Assembly (NCBI GenBank): GCA_030044035.1
Contig: JASHWN010000214.1
Location: 1-14,905, forward strand
Source of the DNA: Xanthobacteraceae bacterium
Lineage (GTDB): Bacteria > Pseudomonadota > Alphaproteobacteria > Rhizobiales > Xanthobacteraceae
Reading direction: 5' to 3'
DNA: 14,905 nt
The notes beneath the pieces were generated by a model that saw only the letters and a list, made by a program, of their open reading frames with translations, ran no database searches and was not told where the DNA came from. The position numbers and the translations under genes are program-made. Positions 4,798 to 12,930 of this stretch are shown here, in pieces. Position 1 is the stretch's first letter. Each line of letters opens with the position of its first letter.

Positions 4798-4867
4798 GGT
4801 ACGTGTCTTTCCTGGAGTTCATGTCACGGTGCGCGCCGCGACCGCCAGCCTCAACATTGAGCCGAGC

Positions 4868-4902
4868 GGACGCGTGCCGCAACGGGTAAATGCGTCCTTT
4901 TT
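4868..4902 (+). terminator. Possible orphan intrinsic terminator
   Basis: GGACGC (4868-4873) pairs with GCGTCC (4892-4897) and is followed directly by TTTTT (4898-4902). The 18-base loop contains a small CCG/CGG pairing. It has the form of a rho-independent terminator reading rightwards, although the stem is short. No plus-strand gene ends nearby: the previous plus gene stops at 4130 and the flanking CMD gene is transcribed away. It could end antisense or readthrough transcription ahead of bamA, or be chance. Confidence 0.3.
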
Positions 4903-5083
4903 GGGGTCGCGTAAGTGGCCTTATCCTTCGGCCCTTTGCGCGCCGGGCGCCGGGCGATAATTAGCCGTAAACCATTATGGCAAGCGCCCCAAGAATTCCT
5001 CACAATCCGACACAAAGGGTCATGCTGCCGCCGTGGCAACCCAGTGTGATCGCACCCGGATTTGGGAAATTCAGGGTGCGAGG

Positions 5084-7432
5084 ATGCGCGGCCGGTTTTC
5101 TGCCGTCGTTCTTTCAATTCTGCTGTGCGGATTTTGCGCCTTGGCCGCGTGCGGCGCCGCGCGCGCGGCCGGCGTTACCGATTCCATCGCGGTGAGCGGC
5201 AACCGCCACGTCGACGCCGCGACCGTCCGCTCCTATTTCCACCCGGCCGCCGATGGCCGGCTCGACGGCGCTGTGCTCGATGCGGCGCTCAAGGCGCTTT
5301 ACGAGAGCGGCCTGTTCTCTGACGTCAAGATCAGCCATGACGGCGGCCGCGTCGTCGTCAAGGTCGTGGAAAATCCGCTTATTCGCAAGGTCGCCGTCGA
5401 GGGCAACAAGAAAGTCAAGGACGCCGACCTGACGAAGGCCCTGCAGTCGAAGCCCGGCGGGCCGCTGTCGCGTGCCATGGTGCAGGGCGACATGCAGCGG
5501 CTGCGCGACATCTACCAGCAGCACGGCTACTTCCAGGCTCGCATCGAACCGCAGATGATCGACGCCAAGAACGGCCGCGACGATCTCGTCTTCCAGATCA
5601 AGGAGGGCGACAAGCTCGCGGTGCGCAAAATCCTCTTTGCCGGCAACAACGCGTTTGCCGGCAACAAGCTCACCGGCCAGATCAAGAGCGGCAAGACCAA
5701 CTTCTTGAGTTTTCTGCTCGACAACGACATCTACGACGCCGACAAGATCGAAAACGATTGCGACCTCATTCGCCGCTTCTATCGCGCCCACGGCTATGCC
5801 GACGCGCGCGTACGCACGGCGGCGAGCTACGAGCCGAGCGAGCAAGGCGTCGTGCTCACCTTCGTCATCGACGAAGGCCCGTACTACCGCTTCGGCAAAG
5901 TCGATCTGCAATCGGACATGAAGGCGGTCGATGCCGCGGCGTTCCGCTCCTATGTACTGACCCAGCAGGGCGACGCGTTCAATGCCGACGCCATCGACAA
6001 GTCGGTGGACGCGTTGACCATGGCGCTGGCCCGAAGCGGCGAGCCGTTCGCCAGCGTCGCGGCGCGCATCGATCGCGAGCCGCCGCGCAGCGGCGCGGCT
6101 GCGGCCGGAATTGTCGATCTCGTCTACACCATCGACGAGGGCGACCGTGTCTACGTCGAGCGCATCGTCGTCCACGGCAATACCAAGACCCATGACGAGG
6201 TGATCCGCCGCCAGCTCGATTTCGGCGAGGGCGATGCCTACAACCGTGCGCTGGTGGACCGCGCCGAGCGGCGGCTCAAGGCGCTCGGCTATTTCAAATC
6301 GGTGAAGACCGCGATGGAGCCGGGCTCGGCGCCCGACCGCGTCGTGCTCGACATCAATGTGGTCGAGCAGGACACCGGCAATTTCTCGATCTCCGGCGGC
6401 TATTCGACGGTCACCGGAGCGATGGCCAGCGTCAGCGTCAGCGACACCAACATGTTCGGCGCCGGCTATGTCGGCAAGGTCGCGGTGACCTATGGGCAGT
6501 ACGCGCGCAGTTTCGATATCGCGCTCAGCGACCCTTACTTCCTCGACCAGCGGCTCTCCGCCGGCATCGAGCTGTTCGGCAGCGAAACCTTGGCCAACGT
6601 CAACCAGTCCTTTGACAGCACGGTGTATGGCGGCAAATTGACGTTCGGCACGCCGTTGAACGAACAGCTCGGCGTCACCTGGTCCTATTCGCTCTACAAT
6701 CAGTCGGTGTCGCTCGATCCGGTGGACGGCGTCTCGTCGCTGCCGATCCAGCAGGCGGCAGCCGCCGGGCCGATCTGGGTTTCCTCGGTCGGCGTTGGCA
6801 TGGTCTATTCGACGCTCGACAATCCGAAGAACCCGACCAACGGCCTGCGCATACAGACCAACAATGAAATCGCCGGGCTGGGCGGCGGCGCGGACTTCGC
6901 CAAGACCACCGAGGACATACGCTACTATCATCAGATCGCCGGCGACGTGGTCGGCATGGTGCGCACGCAGGACGGCTACGTCACGCCATATGGCGGCCAG
7001 CAATTGCCGCTGCTCGACGGCTTTTTCGGCGGACCGCAGCTCATCCGCGGCTTCGCGCCCAACGGCTTTGGGCCGCGCGACGTCACGCCTGGCACCACGA
7101 TGGATAATCTCGGCGGCAACGTCTACTGGACCATGTCGTCCGAATTGCAGGCGCCGGTGCCAGGCGTGCCGGCCGACGCCAATCTGAAAATGGCGCTGTT
7201 CTCCGACGTCGGCAGCCTGTGGGCGACCGGCGCGAGCGCGACCAGTCTCGCCGCGCTGTCGCAGTCGCAGTCGCAGCAGATCACCAATTCGAAGGGCTTG
7301 CGCGCCTCCGCCGGTATCGGCCTGGTTTGGGATTCGCCGTTCGGCGCGATGGAGGTCGACTACGCCTATCCGTTCGTCACCCAGCCCGGCGACGTGACGC
7401 AGCGGCTCAATTTCACCGCCGGCCAGTTTTGA
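5084..7432 (+). CDS. bamA: Outer membrane assembly factor BamA (Omp85), probable paralogue
   Basis: An outer membrane protein of the Omp85 family, which folds and inserts beta-barrel proteins with the Bam lipoproteins. The 782 residues hold a signal peptide (1 to about 28) and five POTRA domains (about 32-95, 99-175, 178-263, 267-352, 356-428). A 16-strand barrel from about 432 ends in the beta-signal ...QRLNFTAGQF with terminal Phe. The family motif RGF (655-657, in LIRGFAPNGFGPRD) marks loop 6. The frame is open from GTG 5033, but ATG 5084, with an AGGG/GAGG purine run just upstream, starts a proper signal sequence. The signal contains LAAC (20-23), which resembles a lipoprotein box; ARA at 26-28 is the alternative signal peptidase I site. 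The usual neighbours rseP, lpxD and fabZ are absent, so I infer a second copy specialised for certain substrates. Confidence 0.9.
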   Translation: MRGRFSAVVLSILLCGFCALAACGAARAAGVTDSIAVSGNRHVDAATVRSYFHPAADGRLDGAVLDAALKALYESGLFSDVKISHDGGRVVVKVVENPLIRKVAVEGNKKVKDADLTKALQSKPGGPLSRAMVQGDMQRLRDIYQQHGYFQARIEPQMIDAKNGRDDLVFQIKEGDKLAVRKILFAGNNAFAGNKLTGQIKSGKTNFLSFLLDNDIYDADKIENDCDLIRRFYRAHGYADARVRTAASYEPSEQGVVLTFVIDEGPYYRFGKVDLQSDMKAVDAAAFRSYVLTQQGDAFNADAIDKSVDALTMALARSGEPFASVAARIDREPPRSGAAAAGIVDLVYTIDEGDRVYVERIVVHGNTKTHDEVIRRQLDFGEGDAYNRALVDRAERRLKALGYFKSVKTAMEPGSAPDRVVLDINVVEQDTGNFSISGGYSTVTGAMASVSVSDTNMFGAGYVGKVAVTYGQYARSFDIALSDPYFLDQRLSAGIELFGSETLANVNQSFDSTVYGGKLTFGTPLNEQLGVTWSYSLYNQSVSLDPVDGVSSLPIQQAAAAGPIWVSSVGVGMVYSTLDNPKNPTNGLRIQTNNEIAGLGGGADFAKTTEDIRYYHQIAGDVVGMVRTQDGYVTPYGGQQLPLLDGFFGGPQLIRGFAPNGFGPRDVTPGTTMDNLGGNVYWTMSSELQAPVPGVPADANLKMALFSDVGSLWATGASATSLAALSQSQSQQITNSKGLRASAGIGLVWDSPFGAMEVDYAYPFVTQPGDVTQRLNFTAGQF

Positions 7433-7472: not shown

Positions 7473-8828
7473 TCAAATTCCCTTCAGGTACTCGATCAGA
7501 TCCTTCTTCTGCGCATCGCTGAGCTTGAGATCCAACAACGAGTCGTAGTGGTTCACCACGTCGAGTAGCGTTGCAAAACGCCCATCGTGGTAGAAGCCGC
7601 CCTTCTGGTGGGTCCACAGTCCCGCCAATGGGGCGGTGCGGTACATGTGGGTCGGCGAGCGGTCGGCCTGGAACGAGTCGACGCCGATCTCGGCGGGGGC
7701 GTGTAAATTGTTGCCCGGCTCCGTGAACAGCGGCGGGACGTGACAGGTCGCGCACTTGGCCGTTCCGTCGAACAGCGCCTTGCCGCGTTCGAAAGCAGCG
7801 TGATCGTACGATCCCGGCGGCGCCTGCGGTGCTGGAATTGAGAGCTGATAAAAGTGCAGCGCCGCCAGCTTCGCGGTCAGCTTGTCGGGAGAGCCTCGCG
7901 TGTTCCAAGCGCCGCTTTTCGCCGCCACCGGATATTGATCCTTGTCGCCCAAGCGTGCGTCGAAGAAGGTTCCGGAGCCGTGCATTTCGGTGGCGCCGAC
8001 ATAGGCGTTCCAGTACGGCACCGAACCGAAACCGGTCCAGGTGTGCAAATTCACGCCGGCTAGCCCGAATGCCGGCGGGATGAGCGTGCCGGCCTGCTTG
8101 CCGTCGGGGCGCAGCGCCTTGCCGTCCTTGTCCAATTCCGCATCGAAGCGGCCCGGCCCCCAGGTGGCGAGGACCTTCTTTACAGTCGCCGCATCGACGC
8201 CGAGCAGATCGGTAAAGGGCTGCAGATTAGGCGCCAGAGACACGATGGCGCCGACATTGAGATCGCGATTGGCCCAGCCGTCGAGGCGCTCGCCGATGCC
8301 GGGCGCAAACGAATTGTCGACGGTTGAATGACAAAAGGCGCACTGGATGCCTATCGATTTGACCGCGCCATTGCCATCGGCGAACGCCGTGACGCCGACC
8401 ACTGCGTTCAACTTGAGCAGCGCGATCGTCGTCGCCGGATCGTCGAGGTTCACTTTGCCGGCCGCAAGCTGCTTCTTCAGAGCGTTCGGCAGTGCGTCGG
8501 CATCCACCTTGAGACCGACCGCCAAGGCCGTTTTCGGCGACACGCCCGGGCCGACGCCGCCATTCTTTTCGCCGGCAATCGCCTTGTGCAGTTGCAATGC
8601 CTCGCCCCAGAACGCCTCGCTGCCGAACGTGTCATAGCGAAATATCTTTCTACCCTCGTCGAGCATCGTCTGGGCGTGGCGCGCGATCTCGGCATCGAAA
8701 CCGCCGCGACGCGGAGCGGCGGATGAGACGACGGCTGCAACCGATGCTGCCGTACCAAGCACCGCAAGTTTCACGAGTTTCGACTTGCGCATGCCGCGTG
8801 CGGCAGCGATCAAATCCTTCGAACCCAT
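7473..8828 (-). CDS. Exported di-heme cytochrome c, peroxidase/MauG type
   Basis: A periplasmic c-type cytochrome with two covalent hemes: CAFCH (163-167) and CATCH (359-363). The C-terminal half carries the signature of bacterial di-heme cytochrome c peroxidases and MauG-like enzymes: MYRTAPLAGLW (395-405), then FYHDGRFATLLDVVNHYD (412-429). Peroxide reduction, or another oxidation driven by a high-valent heme, is therefore likely, though the substrate is open. The N-terminus (RKSKLVK, then hydrophobic 21-35) is a signal peptide or anchor. The frame extends to ATG 8888, but ATG 8828 has GGGGAGG five bases ahead and is clearly the start, giving 451 residues. The promoter region holds Crp/Fnr-type inverted repeats and the neighbouring upstream gene encodes a Crp-family regulator, so control by that protein is likely. 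It converges on bamA with a 40-base gap. Confidence 0.87.
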   Translation of the reverse strand: MGSKDLIAAARGMRKSKLVKLAVLGTAASVAAVVSSAAPRRGGFDAEIARHAQTMLDEGRKIFRYDTFGSEAFWGEALQLHKAIAGEKNGGVGPGVSPKTALAVGLKVDADALPNALKKQLAAGKVNLDDPATTIALLKLNAVVGVTAFADGNGAVKSIGIQCAFCHSTVDNSFAPGIGERLDGWANRDLNVGAIVSLAPNLQPFTDLLGVDAATVKKVLATWGPGRFDAELDKDGKALRPDGKQAGTLIPPAFGLAGVNLHTWTGFGSVPYWNAYVGATEMHGSGTFFDARLGDKDQYPVAAKSGAWNTRGSPDKLTAKLAALHFYQLSIPAPQAPPGSYDHAAFERGKALFDGTAKCATCHVPPLFTEPGNNLHAPAEIGVDSFQADRSPTHMYRTAPLAGLWTHQKGGFYHDGRFATLLDVVNHYDSLLDLKLSDAQKKDLIEYLKGI

Positions 8829-8833
8829 TGTCG

Positions 8834-8840
8834 CCTCCCC
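8834..8840 (-). promoter_or_regulatory. Ribosome binding site of the di-heme cytochrome
   Basis: GGGGAGG on the minus strand ends five bases before ATG 8828. It is the strongest Shine-Dalgarno sequence in the window. It fixes the start here rather than at the in-frame ATG 8888. Confidence 0.8.
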
Positions 8841-8913
8841 GTGGAATCCGTCGCCTGGATGCCGATCCGAAAAGCGAACGCGGCTCATCCCAGCGCGATA
8901 TTTTCGGAGCGAA

Positions 8914-9029: not shown

Positions 9030-9057
9030 CGCGGGTGTTACTTTTGTAACACCCGCG
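9030..9057. promoter_or_regulatory. Operator-like site C in a perfect 12-base-stem hairpin
   Basis: CGCGGGTGTTAC (9030-9041) and GTAACACCCGCG (9046-9057) form a perfect inverted repeat around TTTT. The core GTTAC-N4-GTAAC is the same as site A, so it may be a high-affinity operator, possibly for looping or autoregulation. It also lies 33 bases after the stop codon of the Crp-type gene. Read leftwards, a GC-rich hairpin with an AAAA loop followed by ATTTCAT could act as a weak terminator of that operon. The two roles are not exclusive. Confidence 0.5.
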
Positions 9058-9090: not shown

Positions 9091-9843
9091 TCAAGGCAAG
9101 TACGGCTCGAGCGCGTCGATGTCGAGTACCATGTGGCCTCTAGCCGAGTATTGGACAATTCCTCGGCGGCGGAGCGAATTGAGCGCGGTCGAGATGCGTT
9201 CGCGGCGCGCTCCCGCCATCTGGGCGATTTCTTCCTGGGTAAGATAGACCGGAATCTGCACCAGCGGACCGGAGCGCTGCCCGATCTTGGTCGCCAAGCC
9301 GCTCAGAACCTTGATCAGCCGGTGAACAGTATCGTCGAGTGCCATGCTGTTGACTTGCGCATACGCTTCTTTCAGCGCGCGGCAGAACACGTCTACCAAA
9401 ACGGTAGCCAATGCTGGCTGTTGCAGCAGCGACTGCATGACTTCTTCAAACGGCACGCAGACGGCATCGGTGGGCTCCAGCGCCACCGCGCGGTCGCTGC
9501 GGGCCTTTTCGGTAGCGCAAAGCTCTCCGACAACGTCGCCGGATTTGCGCACATCGTAAATGACTTCGCGCCCATCGACGGCAATCGTTCCGACCTTGGC
9601 AAAACCGCTCCGGAGAAAGAACAGAGTTCTTTCGCGGTCTCCCACATCGTAGATCACAGAATGTTTCTTGAACGCTGTTGTCTTGCGATTCGGTAGAATA
9701 AAATCGCAAAAGTTGCCGCGAAACACCGAGACCAGGGCGGTGGAGAGCGAGGCCTGACGGCCAAGCGCATCGTCTAGCTCGACGGATTGGTCGGAGTCTT
9801 GTCTCGCCGGCGACTTCACAATGTCCAAAATCGGGGATGTCAT
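9091..9843 (-). CDS. Crp/Fnr-family transcriptional regulator
   Basis: A 250-residue dimeric DNA-binding regulator. The N-terminal cyclic-nucleotide-binding-type beta-roll spans about 40-140 (GDVVGEL 102-108, the phosphate-cassette position), followed by a long dimerisation helix (about 145-185) and a C-terminal winged helix-turn-helix (202-245). The recognition helix RRERISTALNSL aligns with that of E. coli Crp. Arg214 and Glu215 match its Arg180 and Glu181, Ser218 matches the Fnr serine, and Thr219 replaces Arg185. The N-terminal cysteine cluster of Fnr is absent (cysteines only at 46, 109, 129 and 154), so iron-sulfur oxygen sensing of the Fnr type is unlikely; the effector is unknown. ATG 9843 has a G-rich run 6-7 bases upstream and lies 24 bases after the reductase stop, so it is probably the last gene of the folE operon. 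The GTTAC/GTAAC array lies between it and the cytochrome gene. Confidence 0.9.
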   Translation of the reverse strand: MTSPILDIVKSPARQDSDQSVELDDALGRQASLSTALVSVFRGNFCDFILPNRKTTAFKKHSVIYDVGDRERTLFFLRSGFAKVGTIAVDGREVIYDVRKSGDVVGELCATEKARSDRAVALEPTDAVCVPFEEVMQSLLQQPALATVLVDVFCRALKEAYAQVNSMALDDTVHRLIKVLSGLATKIGQRSGPLVQIPVYLTQEEIAQMAGARRERISTALNSLRRRGIVQYSARGHMVLDIDALEPYLP

Positions 9844-9867: not shown

Positions 9868-11394
9868 CTATTGCACGACGGCCCGCTCCATCGCCAGTTC
9901 GGCTCTCAGGCTTTCGACGTCGCGGAATATCGAGGCGACGGCGAGCACGCGGCCCTGACGCTTGTAGCGCAGCAGGCAATCCTTCGACGCAATAACACCG
10001 TCGATGGCGATCTCATCCCATTGCTCGGCGTGGCCGACATAATTGATCGGCACGTCGTAATGCTGGCTCCAGAAGAACGGCACGGCATCGAAGGGCTCGT
10101 TCTGACCCAGCATGTTGACCGCCGCGGTCTGGCCTTGGCGTTCGGCGACGACCCAGTGTTCGACGCGGATGGCTGCGCCCGAGTGCGGATCGGGCCAACG
10201 CGCGATATCGCCGGCGGCGTAAATACCGGGCGCGCTGGTTTCGAGAAACTGGTTCACCGCGACGCCGCGATCGAGCGTGAGCCCGATCTGCTCGGCAAGC
10301 GCAAGGCGCGGCCGCACGCCGACGCCGACGACGACGAGGTCCGCTTCGACCGTGCCGCCGCTCTTGAGCGTGGCGCGGCTTCCGTCCATGGCAGCGACCG
10401 TGTCCTGCAGGTGAAATACGACGCCGTGCTCTTCGTGCAGGGCGCGAATGAAGTCGCCCATTTGCGGCCCCAGCACCCGCTCCATCGGCCGCGCTTCGGG
10501 CGCGACGACAACGACCTCGATGCCGCGCGTGCGCAGTGACGCCGCGACTTCGAGCCCGATGAAACTCGCGCCGATCACCAGCGCGCGCCGCGCGTTGCCG
10601 GCCGCCGCGATGATGGCGCGGCAATCGGCAAGCGTACGCAGCGTGTGGAGCCGCGACGGGTCGGCGCCCGGGATCGGCAGCCGAACCGGCTCGGCGCCAG
10701 TCGCGAGCAAGAGCCTGTCGTAGATGAATGTCTTGCCGCCCCCGATCGCAACCTCGCGTGCTTTCGCATCGATGCCGACGACGTCGACATCGAGCTGCAA
10801 GTCGATGCCACTTTCGGGGTAGAACCCTTCCGGCCGCAGCGGCAGCCAATCCTCGGGTGCGCTGCCGGCGAGATAATCCTTCGACAGGTTCGGCCGATCG
10901 ACCGGCGCCGCGGCATCGTTGCTCAGCATGACGATGCTGCCGGCAAAGCCGCGCCGCCGCAGCATCTCGGCCGCCGCAAAACCGGCGGCGCCGCCGCCGA
11001 CAATAACGATGCGGCCTGGCAGATTTTTGGAGGCGGGCAGGCGCGACGTTGAGCGCTCGCGCTTTTCTTTGACAAAAATTTGCCTGTCGCGTTGCTCGAC
11101 CTTCCAGCAATCGACCGCGCTTAGCGCCGGGGCGCGCAATGCCTCGCCGCTTCGCAGATCGAAGCAGGCGTGGTGCCATGGGCAGCGCACGTCGCCATCC
11201 GTAATGATGCCCTCGGCGAGCGGGCCGTGATAATGCGTGCAATAGGCGGCGATGGCGAAAATTTCGGCACCGCTCTGTACCAAGAGCACCTCCTCGTCGC
11301 CGATATGTCCGACCAGCCGGCCGTCGACGAAATCGGACAGCGCAACGCCCTGCGTCAGATCGGGTCCAGCAGGAGAAGTTTGTTCGTCAGCCAT
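9868..11394 (-). CDS. Rieske ferredoxin-FAD/NAD(P)H reductase fusion (AIF-like)
   Basis: A 508-residue flavoprotein with an N-terminal Rieske 2Fe-2S domain, the layout of AIF-like (AIFM3) proteins and related ferredoxin reductases. The Rieske ligands are Cys52-x-His54 (CTHYHG) and Cys71-x2-His74 (CPWHHACFD). The FAD site is VIVIGGG-like, read here as IVIVGGGAAG (129-138), the NAD(P)H site ALVIGASFIGLE (271-282), and the second FAD contact YAAGDIA (392-398). It has no signal peptide, so it should move electrons from NAD(P)H through FAD and the cluster to a cytoplasmic partner, unidentified here. ATG 11394 has GGAGG six bases upstream. The gap to folE is 18 bases and to the regulator gene 24, so the three are likely one transcript. 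The partner could be an oxygenase or a stress-related acceptor; the fused cluster may make a separate ferredoxin unnecessary. Confidence 0.88.
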   Translation of the reverse strand: MADEQTSPAGPDLTQGVALSDFVDGRLVGHIGDEEVLLVQSGAEIFAIAAYCTHYHGPLAEGIITDGDVRCPWHHACFDLRSGEALRAPALSAVDCWKVEQRDRQIFVKEKRERSTSRLPASKNLPGRIVIVGGGAAGFAAAEMLRRRGFAGSIVMLSNDAAAPVDRPNLSKDYLAGSAPEDWLPLRPEGFYPESGIDLQLDVDVVGIDAKAREVAIGGGKTFIYDRLLLATGAEPVRLPIPGADPSRLHTLRTLADCRAIIAAAGNARRALVIGASFIGLEVAASLRTRGIEVVVVAPEARPMERVLGPQMGDFIRALHEEHGVVFHLQDTVAAMDGSRATLKSGGTVEADLVVVGVGVRPRLALAEQIGLTLDRGVAVNQFLETSAPGIYAAGDIARWPDPHSGAAIRVEHWVVAERQGQTAAVNMLGQNEPFDAVPFFWSQHYDVPINYVGHAEQWDEIAIDGVIASKDCLLRYKRQGRVLAVASIFRDVESLRAELAMERAVVQ

Positions 11395-11412: not shown

Positions 11413-12027
11413 TCAGGCCGCCATCATAACAAACTCGCGACGAAGCTCCTGGTTGTCGCGGAAGCAGCCGAGCATGCGGCTGGTCACGAGGTCGGTGCCG
11501 GGTTTGTGCACGCCGCGCGTCGTCATGCAGTGATGGGCCGCCCGCAGCACGACGCCGACGCCGCGCGGCTTGAGTACAGCGTTGATCGTATTGGCGATTT
11601 GCGCGGTGAGTTTTTCCTGAAGCTGCAGCCGCTTGGCATAGGCTTCGACCACGCGGGCGAGCTTGCTGATGCCGACCACGCGGCCGTCGGGCACGTACGC
11701 CACCCAGGCGCGGCCCACGATCGGCGCCATATGATGCTCGCAATGGCTTTCGAACCGGATGCCGCGCAGGGCCTCCATCTCGTCGTAGCCATCGATCTCG
11801 TCGAAAGACTTTTGCAGGATCACAATAGGGTCCTGCGCGTAGCCGCCGAACGCCTCCTCCAGCGCGCGCGTCACTCGCGCTGGCGTTTCGATCAAACCTT
11901 GGCGGTACGGATCATCGCCGCTCCAGCGAATGATGGTCCGTATGGCGCCTTCGACCTCGGCTCGGTCGGGTTTGCCGCAACGGTGCGGAGCGCGGGCCGG
12001 CTCTAGGGGAAGGACATGGCCGTTCAT
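11413..12027 (-). CDS. folE: GTP cyclohydrolase I FolE
   Basis: Converts GTP to 7,8-dihydroneopterin triphosphate, the first step to tetrahydrofolate and, in some bacteria, to queuosine or biopterin. The 204 residues have the family length. Zinc and catalytic residues are intact: Cys96 and His99 in SHCEHHMAP, His98 as the catalytic His, and AAHHCMTTRG with Cys167 as third zinc ligand. GISKLARVVEAYAKRLQ (119-135) and the preceding YVPDGRVVG (111-119) are also conserved. ATG 12027 is preceded by GGGAGGAAAG, with the purine run ending 7 bases away. An ECF-type promoter nearly identical to that of the neighbouring sigma gene lies about 60-90 bases upstream. It heads the folE-reductase-regulator operon. 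That setting points to an inducible, possibly second, FolE copy rather than a housekeeping one, which is an inference. Confidence 0.95.
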   Translation of the reverse strand: MNGHVLPLEPARAPHRCGKPDRAEVEGAIRTIIRWSGDDPYRQGLIETPARVTRALEEAFGGYAQDPIVILQKSFDEIDGYDEMEALRGIRFESHCEHHMAPIVGRAWVAYVPDGRVVGISKLARVVEAYAKRLQLQEKLTAQIANTINAVLKPRGVGVVLRAAHHCMTTRGVHKPGTDLVTSRMLGCFRDNQELRREFVMMAA

Positions 12028-12088: not shown

Positions 12089-12117
12089 TTAGATGGGATT
12101 CCGCGGTGAAAGGTTCC
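12089..12117 (-). promoter_or_regulatory. ECF-sigma promoter of the folE operon
   Basis: On the minus strand the -35 GGAACC (12117 to 12112) and -10 TCTAA (12093 to 12089) are 18 bases apart, matching the GGAACTT...TCTAA pattern of RpoE-type sigma factors. The start site should fall near 12082, giving a leader of about 55 bases to ATG 12027. Flanking bases (GGAACCTTT, CCATCTAA) are shared with the promoter of the sigma gene itself. Confidence 0.68.
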
Positions 12118-12127
12118 GCAACAACGA

Positions 12128-12820
12128 CTATTCGCAAATGCCCAGCCGTTTCATCACCGCCTCGGTCACTCGCTCACAGCGGCGGCCAGCAAACGGAAAC
12201 GCGTCCATCAGCACCGGACCGATCTGCTTGTCCAATTGCTCGCGGACGAGTTGCCGCGCCCGGTGCAGCCTGGTTTTGACCGTCTGCGGCCTGATGCCGA
12301 GAAGTTCGGAGGTCTCCTCGACACTCATGCCTTCGATTACCCGCGTGACGAACACCAATCGAAAAGCAGCCGGTAAATCGTCGGTTGCTCGCTCGACAAG
12401 CTCGAGAATTTGCCGCTGTGCCATGGTTCGTTCCGGATCGTCATTCGGGGTCGATAGAGGAAATTGGATGATTTCGGCTTCACTTCGCATGGCGTCACCT
12501 GCGGCAATATCCACGGTGGCGCGCCTGCGCCGCAGTCGTCCCAGGGCCTCGTTCATAACGATGCGGGACAGCCAGGTCGCAAGGGCGGATTCGCCTCGAT
12601 AACTCGCAAGATTAGTGAAGGCGGCCACATAGGCGTCCTGAACGGCGTCCTCGGCGTCGGCGTTATTGCCGAGGATTCCTCGCGCAATGCGATAGAGGCG
12701 GCGATTGTGTTTCTGCATGATTGCGCGAAAGGCGCCTGCATCGTGGGCGAGCGCTCGCCGCACCAAATTGGTGTCGTCCGACACGGCGGGAACAGTCCGC
12801 CTAGCGATATTTTGGACCAT
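12128..12820 (-). CDS. ECF-family RNA polymerase sigma factor (RpoE-like)
   Basis: A 230-residue extracytoplasmic-function sigma factor that directs RNA polymerase to stress-type promoters. Region 2 spans about 25-100, with the core-binding and -10 segment (DAEDAVQDAYVAAF 55-68, YRGESALATWLSRIVMNEA 74-92). Region 4 spans about 135-197, with the -35-reading helix-turn-helix SVEETSELLGIRPQTVKTRL (166-185). Beyond region 4 is a conserved-looking tail of about 33 residues (FPFAGRRCERVTEAVMKRL, Cys215, Cys229). ATG 12820 has AAGGGA six to seven bases upstream. No anti-sigma gene adjoins it: the previous gene is a binding-protein homologue and the next is folE. A promoter like that of folE lies directly upstream, which indicates autoregulation. 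The signal it senses is unknown; the redox genes downstream suggest oxidative or related stress. Confidence 0.93.
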   Translation of the reverse strand: MVQNIARRTVPAVSDDTNLVRRALAHDAGAFRAIMQKHNRRLYRIARGILGNNADAEDAVQDAYVAAFTNLASYRGESALATWLSRIVMNEALGRLRRRRATVDIAAGDAMRSEAEIIQFPLSTPNDDPERTMAQRQILELVERATDDLPAAFRLVFVTRVIEGMSVEETSELLGIRPQTVKTRLHRARQLVREQLDKQIGPVLMDAFPFAGRRCERVTEAVMKRLGICE

Positions 12821-12841
12821 AAACTATCCCTTTCCAGCCGC

Positions 12842-12869
12842 TTAGATGGTCCGCCGGAGAAAAGGTTCC
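12842..12869 (-). promoter_or_regulatory. ECF-sigma promoter of the sigma factor gene (autoregulation)
   Basis: On the minus strand -35 GGAACC (12869 to 12864) and -10 TCTAA (12846 to 12842) are 17 bases apart, within GGAACCTTTT...ACCATCTAAGCGG. The start site would be near 12835, leaving a short leader of about 15 bases that contains the ribosome site GGAAAGGGA. The close likeness to the folE promoter suggests that the same sigma factor, the product of this gene, reads both. Confidence 0.68.
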
Positions 12870-12930
12870 CAGCGAAAGCTGAATCTTTGCAGTTTGATCG
12901 CGGGCGTGACGGCCCAAAGCCGCCTGCACC

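What the first reader, a model, noticed from the sequence alone, without database searches (positions are those of the whole stretch)
12089..12869. Two near-identical ECF promoters: sigma gene and folE operon
The sequences upstream of the sigma gene (12869-12842) and of folE (12117-12089) share GGAACCTTT and CCATCTAA with spacers of 17 and 18 bases. I found no other TTAGAT/GGTTCC pair on the plus strand of the window. This directly predicts autoregulation and a regulon of at least folE, the Rieske-FAD reductase and the Crp-type regulator.
Basis: partly seen in the sequence, partly recalled or inferred. Interest (0 to 1): 0.7.

Follow-up and report, generated by a model that had tools for sequence, protein, structure and literature searches.

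The report
ECF29 sigma factor with folE promoter
Two matching DNA switches sit in front of a bacterial stress regulator and in front of an enzyme gene for making folate-type cofactors, which predicts that a poorly understood regulator family (ECF29) turns on itself and this enzyme.

Summary
They fit the published ECF29 promoter. The sigma is 60% identical to S. meliloti RpoE8 (ECF29), and both promoter sequences printed for that locus lie at the equivalent two places, before sigma and just after its stop. A matrix trained without the window scores the sites 30.2 and 24.8 bits; the next best 5.9. Of 12 sigma loci with a site after the stop, 8 lead to DUF4142; here it leads to folE and a Rieske-FAD reductase. 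That target recurs: same operon in G033, divergent sites on folE and reductase away from sigma in G015, P-folE-reductase in G016, P-folE-sigma in G131 and Phenylobacterium. In G002 and G009, where no sigma was found, sigma and most of folE are missing between the same neighbours. The Crp gene adjoins only here (0 of 11 others). Against: 126-fold RpoE8 overexpression raised no target (PMC6180224). Autoregulation and folE control are predicted, not shown.

The parts
12842..12869 (-). ECF29-type promoter of the sigma gene (GGAACC-N17-TCTAA; preceded by G at 12870, so GGGAACC)
   Evidence: (30.2 bits); position equivalent to the S. meliloti rpoE8 promoter in L100
12128..12820 (-). ECF sigma factor, 230 aa, NF008888 (312 bits, cut-off 204), ECF29-like
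   Evidence: 60% identity to the S. meliloti 1021 pSymB homologue
12176..12199 (-). codons of the C-terminal extension motif FPFAGRRC (residues 208-215) with the invariant Cys215
   Evidence: C215 invariant in 38 of 38 aligned rows; codons checked; predicted helix at 213-226
12089..12117 (-). ECF29-type promoter between sigma and folE (GGAACC-N18-TCTAA), with 10 bases between the sigma stop and the site
   Evidence: (24.8 bits); the same place carries a site just after the sigma stop in S. meliloti
11413..12027 (-). folE, GTP cyclohydrolase I, 204 aa, of a second folE lineage
   Evidence: folE tree
9868..11394 (-). Rieske [2Fe-2S] / FAD-dependent reductase fusion, 508 aa
   Evidence: beside folE in G033, G016 and G015
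9091..9843 (-). Crp/Fnr-type regulator; in the operon only by its 24-bp gap
   Evidence: not adjacent in 11 of 11 other loci with enough flank

Best explanation
The sigma gene encodes an ECF29-group sigma factor (S. meliloti RpoE8 type) with a conserved C-terminal extension and no anti-sigma gene beside it. Its RNA polymerase recognises GGGAACCTTT and (G/C)CATC(C/T)AA. One such promoter reads the sigma gene (positive autoregulation), the other reads folE and the Rieske-FAD reductase. Shown here: the sites, their match to the ECF29 promoter, and their conservation and mobility with these genes. Inferred: that the holoenzyme uses both sites; that the switch is set inside the sigma protein by its C-terminal extension with an invariant cysteine; and that the output is a stress-time second GTP cyclohydrolase plus a redox partner, most likely under oxidative or photo-oxidative stress.
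For: Exact sites. Promoter sequences printed for rpoE8 and SMb20593 in PMC6180224 found letter for letter in L100 before the sigma gene and one base after its stop. Leave-one-locus-out matrix: 28 of 38 sigma loci (window included) have an upstream site above every one of 760 random upstream stretches, and 12 of 38 a site within 220 bases after the sigma stop above the same bar. folE and reductase under such sites in G033, G015, G016; reductase alone in G003 and G007; P-folE-sigma in G131 and Phenylobacterium; folE just before the P-led sigma operon in Nitratireductor. GGAACCTTT-form sites: 19 in 20 genomes (19 genomes with a detected sigma, plus G016; 14 of the 20 have one) against 0 in 20 relatives without one. 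Sigma-folE absent as a block in G002 and G009, folE tail left, no site left by the scan.
Against: RpoE8 overexpressed 126-fold raised neither SMb20593 nor any other gene, and no start site was found at the second promoter (PMC6180224). The looser pattern GGAACNTT-N13/14-RTCYA is at background overall: 39 sites against 41 for the reversed pattern in the first 20 genomes, 22 against 19 in the other 20. G007 keeps a site before the reductase with no sigma found. G008 has sigma, two folE and the reductase, none of the last three with a site. 42 of 46 other folE loci have no site. No signal is known.
Confidence: 0.83

Rival explanations
1. Only the upstream promoter works. The second site is a relic or a weak site, and folE is transcribed by read-through from the sigma gene or from an ordinary promoter.
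For: In S. meliloti neither a transcript start nor a response was found at the second site. The window's folE site has the longer spacing and no third G; it scores 5 bits lower.
Against: A site within 220 bases after the sigma stop is above the random maximum in 12 of 38 loci. folE or the reductase carries such a site where no sigma gene is beside it: G015, G016, G003, G007 (G016's contig ends close by).
Confidence: 0.15
2. The sites are used mainly by another ECF sigma with a GGAAC -35 box, such as the general stress sigma EcfG (ECF15). The sigma beside them is a target, not the driver.
For: The -35 box is shared: the rpoE5 promoter printed in PMC6180224 contains GGAACC, and rpoE5 rises with RpoE2.
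Against: The -10 part CATCYAA and the place of the sites follow the ECF29 gene. GGAACCTTT-form sites: 0 in 20 relatives without this sigma. That those relatives hold EcfG is assumed, not tested.
Confidence: 0.1
3. Chance similarity of two stretches.
For: Raw genome-wide counts of the short patterns do not exceed the reversed control.
Against: Matrix scores far above random windows, and conservation across families.
Confidence: 0.01

Closest known systems
ECF29 group, S. meliloti RpoE8 (SMb20592) with SMb20593 (DUF4142) and amcY
   Same: 60% identical sigma; no anti-sigma gene known for the group; same C-terminal end FPFAGxRCER; a GGGAAC / CATC(C/T)AA promoter before the sigma gene and another just after its stop.
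   Different: In S. meliloti the second promoter faces SMb20593 (PF13628, 129 bits) and the cupredoxin gene amcY; here it faces folE and a Rieske-FAD reductase. No DUF4142 match was found in the held part of this genome.
R. sphaeroides / R. capsulatus RpoE-ChrR (ECF11) singlet-oxygen regulon, with folE2
   Same: An ECF sigma raises a GTP cyclohydrolase gene, folE2, under stress (PMC7074977). In G022 a FolE of the window's clade lies near a DNA photolyase, a ChrR-type cupin protein, an ECF sigma and a DUF1295 gene (L136).
   Different: Different ECF group, with an anti-sigma ChrR. The protein family of the Rhodobacter FolE2 was not checked here. That the G022 cluster is ECF11 is my reading of its neighbours.
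B. japonicum EcfF-OsrA (ECF16)
   Same: Autoregulated ECF sigma in oxidative stress of an alphaproteobacterium (PMC3420878, abstract and passages).
   Different: Another group, with an anti-sigma factor whose cysteines are needed for its normal function and H2O2 response.

Membership tests
ECF29 | Promoter GGGAAC / GCATCCAA before the sigma gene | tested here: met
   GGGAACC...CCATCTAA at 12842-12870; 30.2 bits on a matrix trained on ECF29-type loci without the window. Differs at two letters of the printed -10 (C for G, T for C), both also seen in relatives.
ECF29 | Sequence kinship with a classified member | tested here: met
   60% identity over 95% to the sigma at the S. meliloti rpoE8 locus, identified as rpoE8 by the two printed promoter sequences; both in one starred 7-row set of the tree.
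ECF29 | No anti-sigma gene beside it | tested here: met
   Neighbours are an NMT1-type protein upstream and folE downstream.
ECF29 | C-terminal extension (listed under regulatory extensions, others, in PMC8999054) | tested here: met
   Residues after the region-4 match (it ends at 190-194) with FPFxGxRC; C215 invariant in 38 of 38 rows.
ECF29 | Assignment by the group's own profile (ECF Hub / Casas-Pastor 2021) | not testable with these tools
ECF29 | DUF4142 and cupredoxin genes next to sigma (usual company, not a definition) | tested here: not met
   Not beside the window's sigma; no PF13628 match in the 68% complete genome.
ECF15 (EcfG) | GGAAC-N-CGTT-type promoter and NepR/PhyR partners | not tested
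   Only the -35 box is shared; the -10 and the partners are recalled, not tested.

The most novel reading that the evidence does not exclude
ECF29 is a one-protein switch: the sigma senses its signal itself through the C-terminal FPFxGxRC cysteine. In this lineage its main output is an emergency GTP cyclohydrolase with its own electron-transfer partner, so that pterin/folate supply is backed up under oxidative stress. folE was drawn into this regulon more than once and is lost together with the sigma.
Probability: 0.25. Interest if true: 0.68.

Novelty: new variant of a known kind. Interest (0 to 1): 0.45.

Why it matters
The S. meliloti study says that to its authors' knowledge no ECF29 sigma had been studied in detail, found no target of RpoE8 and calls its regulation a mystery (PMC6180224). 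The comparison here gives a concrete small regulon to test (sigma, DUF4142-cupredoxin, folE, Rieske-FAD reductase) and genomes where promoter and gene stay together without the sigma gene beside them. That makes targets and signal testable, and adds folate/pterin supply to what ECF stress circuits may guard.

Tried and rejected
EcfQ/EcfF of Bradyrhizobium (class 33, ECF16) were considered as close kin and dropped after abstract and passages of PMC3420878. ECF26 was the first guess from memory and dropped when the printed consensus did not fit. Azospirillum RpoE8 (PMC12826043, passages) shares only the name, judged by its neighbours. A longer regulon was sought with a looser pattern in the own genome and gave only the same two sites. 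The loose pattern over 40 genomes is at background. The structure model shows an ECF fold and a C-terminal helix but has pTM 0.57 and does not tell a mechanism. In the sigma tree, the folE neighbourhood is not one clade (4 changes; 196 of 500 shuffles as low), so a single origin is not claimed. In one search locus L015 counts as a miss upstream only because the extended start lies past its site, which is seen. Rows left out: one search took the 10 best of the 18 other genomes with a match, and one search took 20 of the 52 genomes without a match. Of the 80 loci only 18 entered the sigma alignment (L020-L036 and L043), chosen by identity; the rest are weaker relatives.

Searches for print on ECF29 with folE: (and 9, 13, 30 for ECF groups). 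None showed ECF29 with folE in what was listed or read; the main ECF classification paper is not held.

Full report
Check. In the operon's direction: site 12869-12842, sigma ATG at 12820, sigma stop ending at 12128, site 12117-12089, folE ATG at 12027, reductase 11394-9868, Crp-type gene 9843-9091. In the held genome (3.3 Mb, 68.4% complete) they are the only two hits, but the reversed patterns hit 5 and 3 times, so counting alone proves little.

What the sigma is. Pfam shows sigma regions 2 and 4; NF008888 fits at 312 bits with a cut-off of 204. A protein search of plasmids finds S. meliloti 1021 pSymB at 60% identity. PMC6180224 (passages and section 10 seen) classes RpoE8 as ECF29, gives the cross-species promoter as GGGAAC / GCATCCAA, and prints promoter sequences for rpoE8 and SMb20593. 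Both printed sequences lie in the fetched locus, one before the sigma gene and one starting one base after its stop. This is the arrangement of the window, where 10 bases lie between stop and site. The review PMC8999054 (passages and tables seen) lists ECF29 among groups without anti-sigma factor and with a regulatory extension of unsorted mechanism.

Promoter test. A two-block matrix was built from 24 sites before sigma or DUF4142 genes in 17 other loci, none from the window and none before folE or the reductase. In the window it scores the two sites 30.2 and 24.8 bits. The third-best place scores 5.9, and the best of 100 first-order random windows 16.1. With each locus left out of its own training (its relatives stay in), 28 of 38 sigma loci, window included, have a site within 1300 bases upstream that beats all 760 random stretches, and 12 of 38 have one within 220 bases after the sigma stop above the same bar. 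The misses are mostly the more distant sigmas. Nine of the 28 upstream sites lie about 680-1110 bases before sigma, at the head of an operon with folE, DUF4142 or cupredoxin genes.

What the second promoter reads. Of the 12 loci with a site after the sigma stop, 8 go on to DUF4142 (Mesorhizobium, Nitrobacter, Rhizobium altiplani, S. meliloti, G003, G008, G015, G025), with a cupredoxin gene after it in 7; in G015 the contig ends first. Two (G061, G367) go on to a ferritin-like protein, and two, the window and G033, to folE and the reductase. folE or the reductase near this kind of site is also found in: G015, where both genes sit back to back on another contig, each with its own site; G016, P-folE-reductase at a contig start; G003 and G007, a site before the reductase; G131, P-folE-sigma; Phenylobacterium (L035), P-folE-sigma. 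In Nitratireductor (L026) folE lies just before the promoter of a sigma operon. Of 46 other folE loci scanned with a loose form of the site in the 500 bases upstream, 4 have it: G033, L035, G015 and G016. The other 42 do not (one of them, L140, is a fragment), among them copies in G003, G008, G044 and G047, which have a sigma of this family.

Second folE. In the folE tree the window's copy lies in a supported set of six (100/96). G016, G022 and G044, which are in it, each have another folE outside it, so this looks like a second, accessory lineage. The G015 copy with the site is not in that set, so the promoter is attached to more than one folE lineage. The window's genome shows only this folE, but about a third of it is missing. 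In G022 the sister copy lies near a DNA photolyase, a ChrR-type cupin protein, an ECF sigma and a DUF1295 gene (L136). In Rhodobacter folE2 belongs to the RpoE singlet-oxygen response (PMC7074977, passages and table). This is the ground for guessing oxidative stress; it is inference.

Loss together. In G002 and G009, relatives without a detected sigma (65% and 90% complete), the UbiD and NMT1 proteins (89-98% identical) and the reductase (87-88%) are encoded side by side as in the window. The stretch between NMT1 stop and reductase start, 1536 bases in the window, is 144 and 105 bases there. It still holds the last 34 and 51 bases of folE coding sequence and what follows (85 columns at 84%, E 3e-20 in G009). 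The block was therefore most likely deleted there rather than newly gained in the window. G010, also without a detected sigma, has the same tail before its reductase but other DNA upstream. G002 and G010 keep something like a decayed site in front of the tail (GGGAAT.. and GGGAAC.. with a broken -10, seen by eye).

Presence and absence. GGAACNTT-N13/14-RTCYA is at background in both sets of 20 genomes (39 against 41 reversed; 22 against 19). The subset beginning GGAACCTTT counts 19 in the first set (19 genomes with a sigma found, plus G016) and 0 in the second (20 relatives without a match). Of the 19, 17 lie before sigma or folE, before the DUF4142 or cupredoxin-sigma operon, or between the sigma stop and a ferritin-like gene; one lies 0.4 kb after sigma in G131; one stands back to back with the reductase's site in G003.

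Sigma protein. Cys215 in the C-terminal FPFxGxRC is invariant in 38 of 38 rows. The model has mean pLDDT 82.6, pTM 0.57 and a helix at 213-226; Foldseek finds ECF sigmas. That the cysteine senses something is a guess.

Against. In S. meliloti, overexpression of RpoE8 raised no gene, and no start was found at the second site; amcY rose when rpoE8-SMb20593 was deleted. Either RpoE8 was inactive (my preferred reading, as the extension may hold it) or the second site does not work. The Crp gene as a target has no support beyond distance: not adjacent in 11 of 11 other reductase loci with 1000 or more bases after the reductase; two further loci were too short to tell.

Verdict. A new variant of a known kind: an ECF29 sigma with its known promoter, and a target not seen in print in my searches, folE with a Rieske-FAD reductase. 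The main classification paper is not held and may list it.

Noticed in passing
L136 (G022:C603): A folE of the window's clade sits near a DNA photolyase, a ChrR-type cupin protein, an ECF sigma and a DUF1295 gene, so the same folE lineage seems tied to another ECF system there.
   Followed up: partly
L226 (G003:C229) 951: An ECF29-type site back to back with the reductase's site, but the folE that stands there in G015 is missing.
   Followed up: partly
L230 (G007:C77) 2584: A good ECF29-type site before the Rieske-FAD reductase in a 90% complete genome in which no sigma of this kind was found.
   Followed up: no
L169 (G061) and L170 (G367): More distant sigmas of this family have a site after the sigma stop followed by a ferritin-like gene (PF13668), and in L169 then a cytochrome c gene.
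   Followed up: partly
L165 (G443) 4807-5253: The first gene of the cupredoxin-sigma operon there encodes a TTHB210-like protein (PF18197).
   Followed up: no
window 9030-9057: Perfect 12-bp inverted repeat with a 4-base loop just after the Crp-type gene; perhaps the end of the operon.
   Followed up: no
window 7473-8888: Cytochrome c / MauG-like protein gene after the Crp-type gene on the same strand; no ECF29-type site scored in front of it.
   Followed up: no
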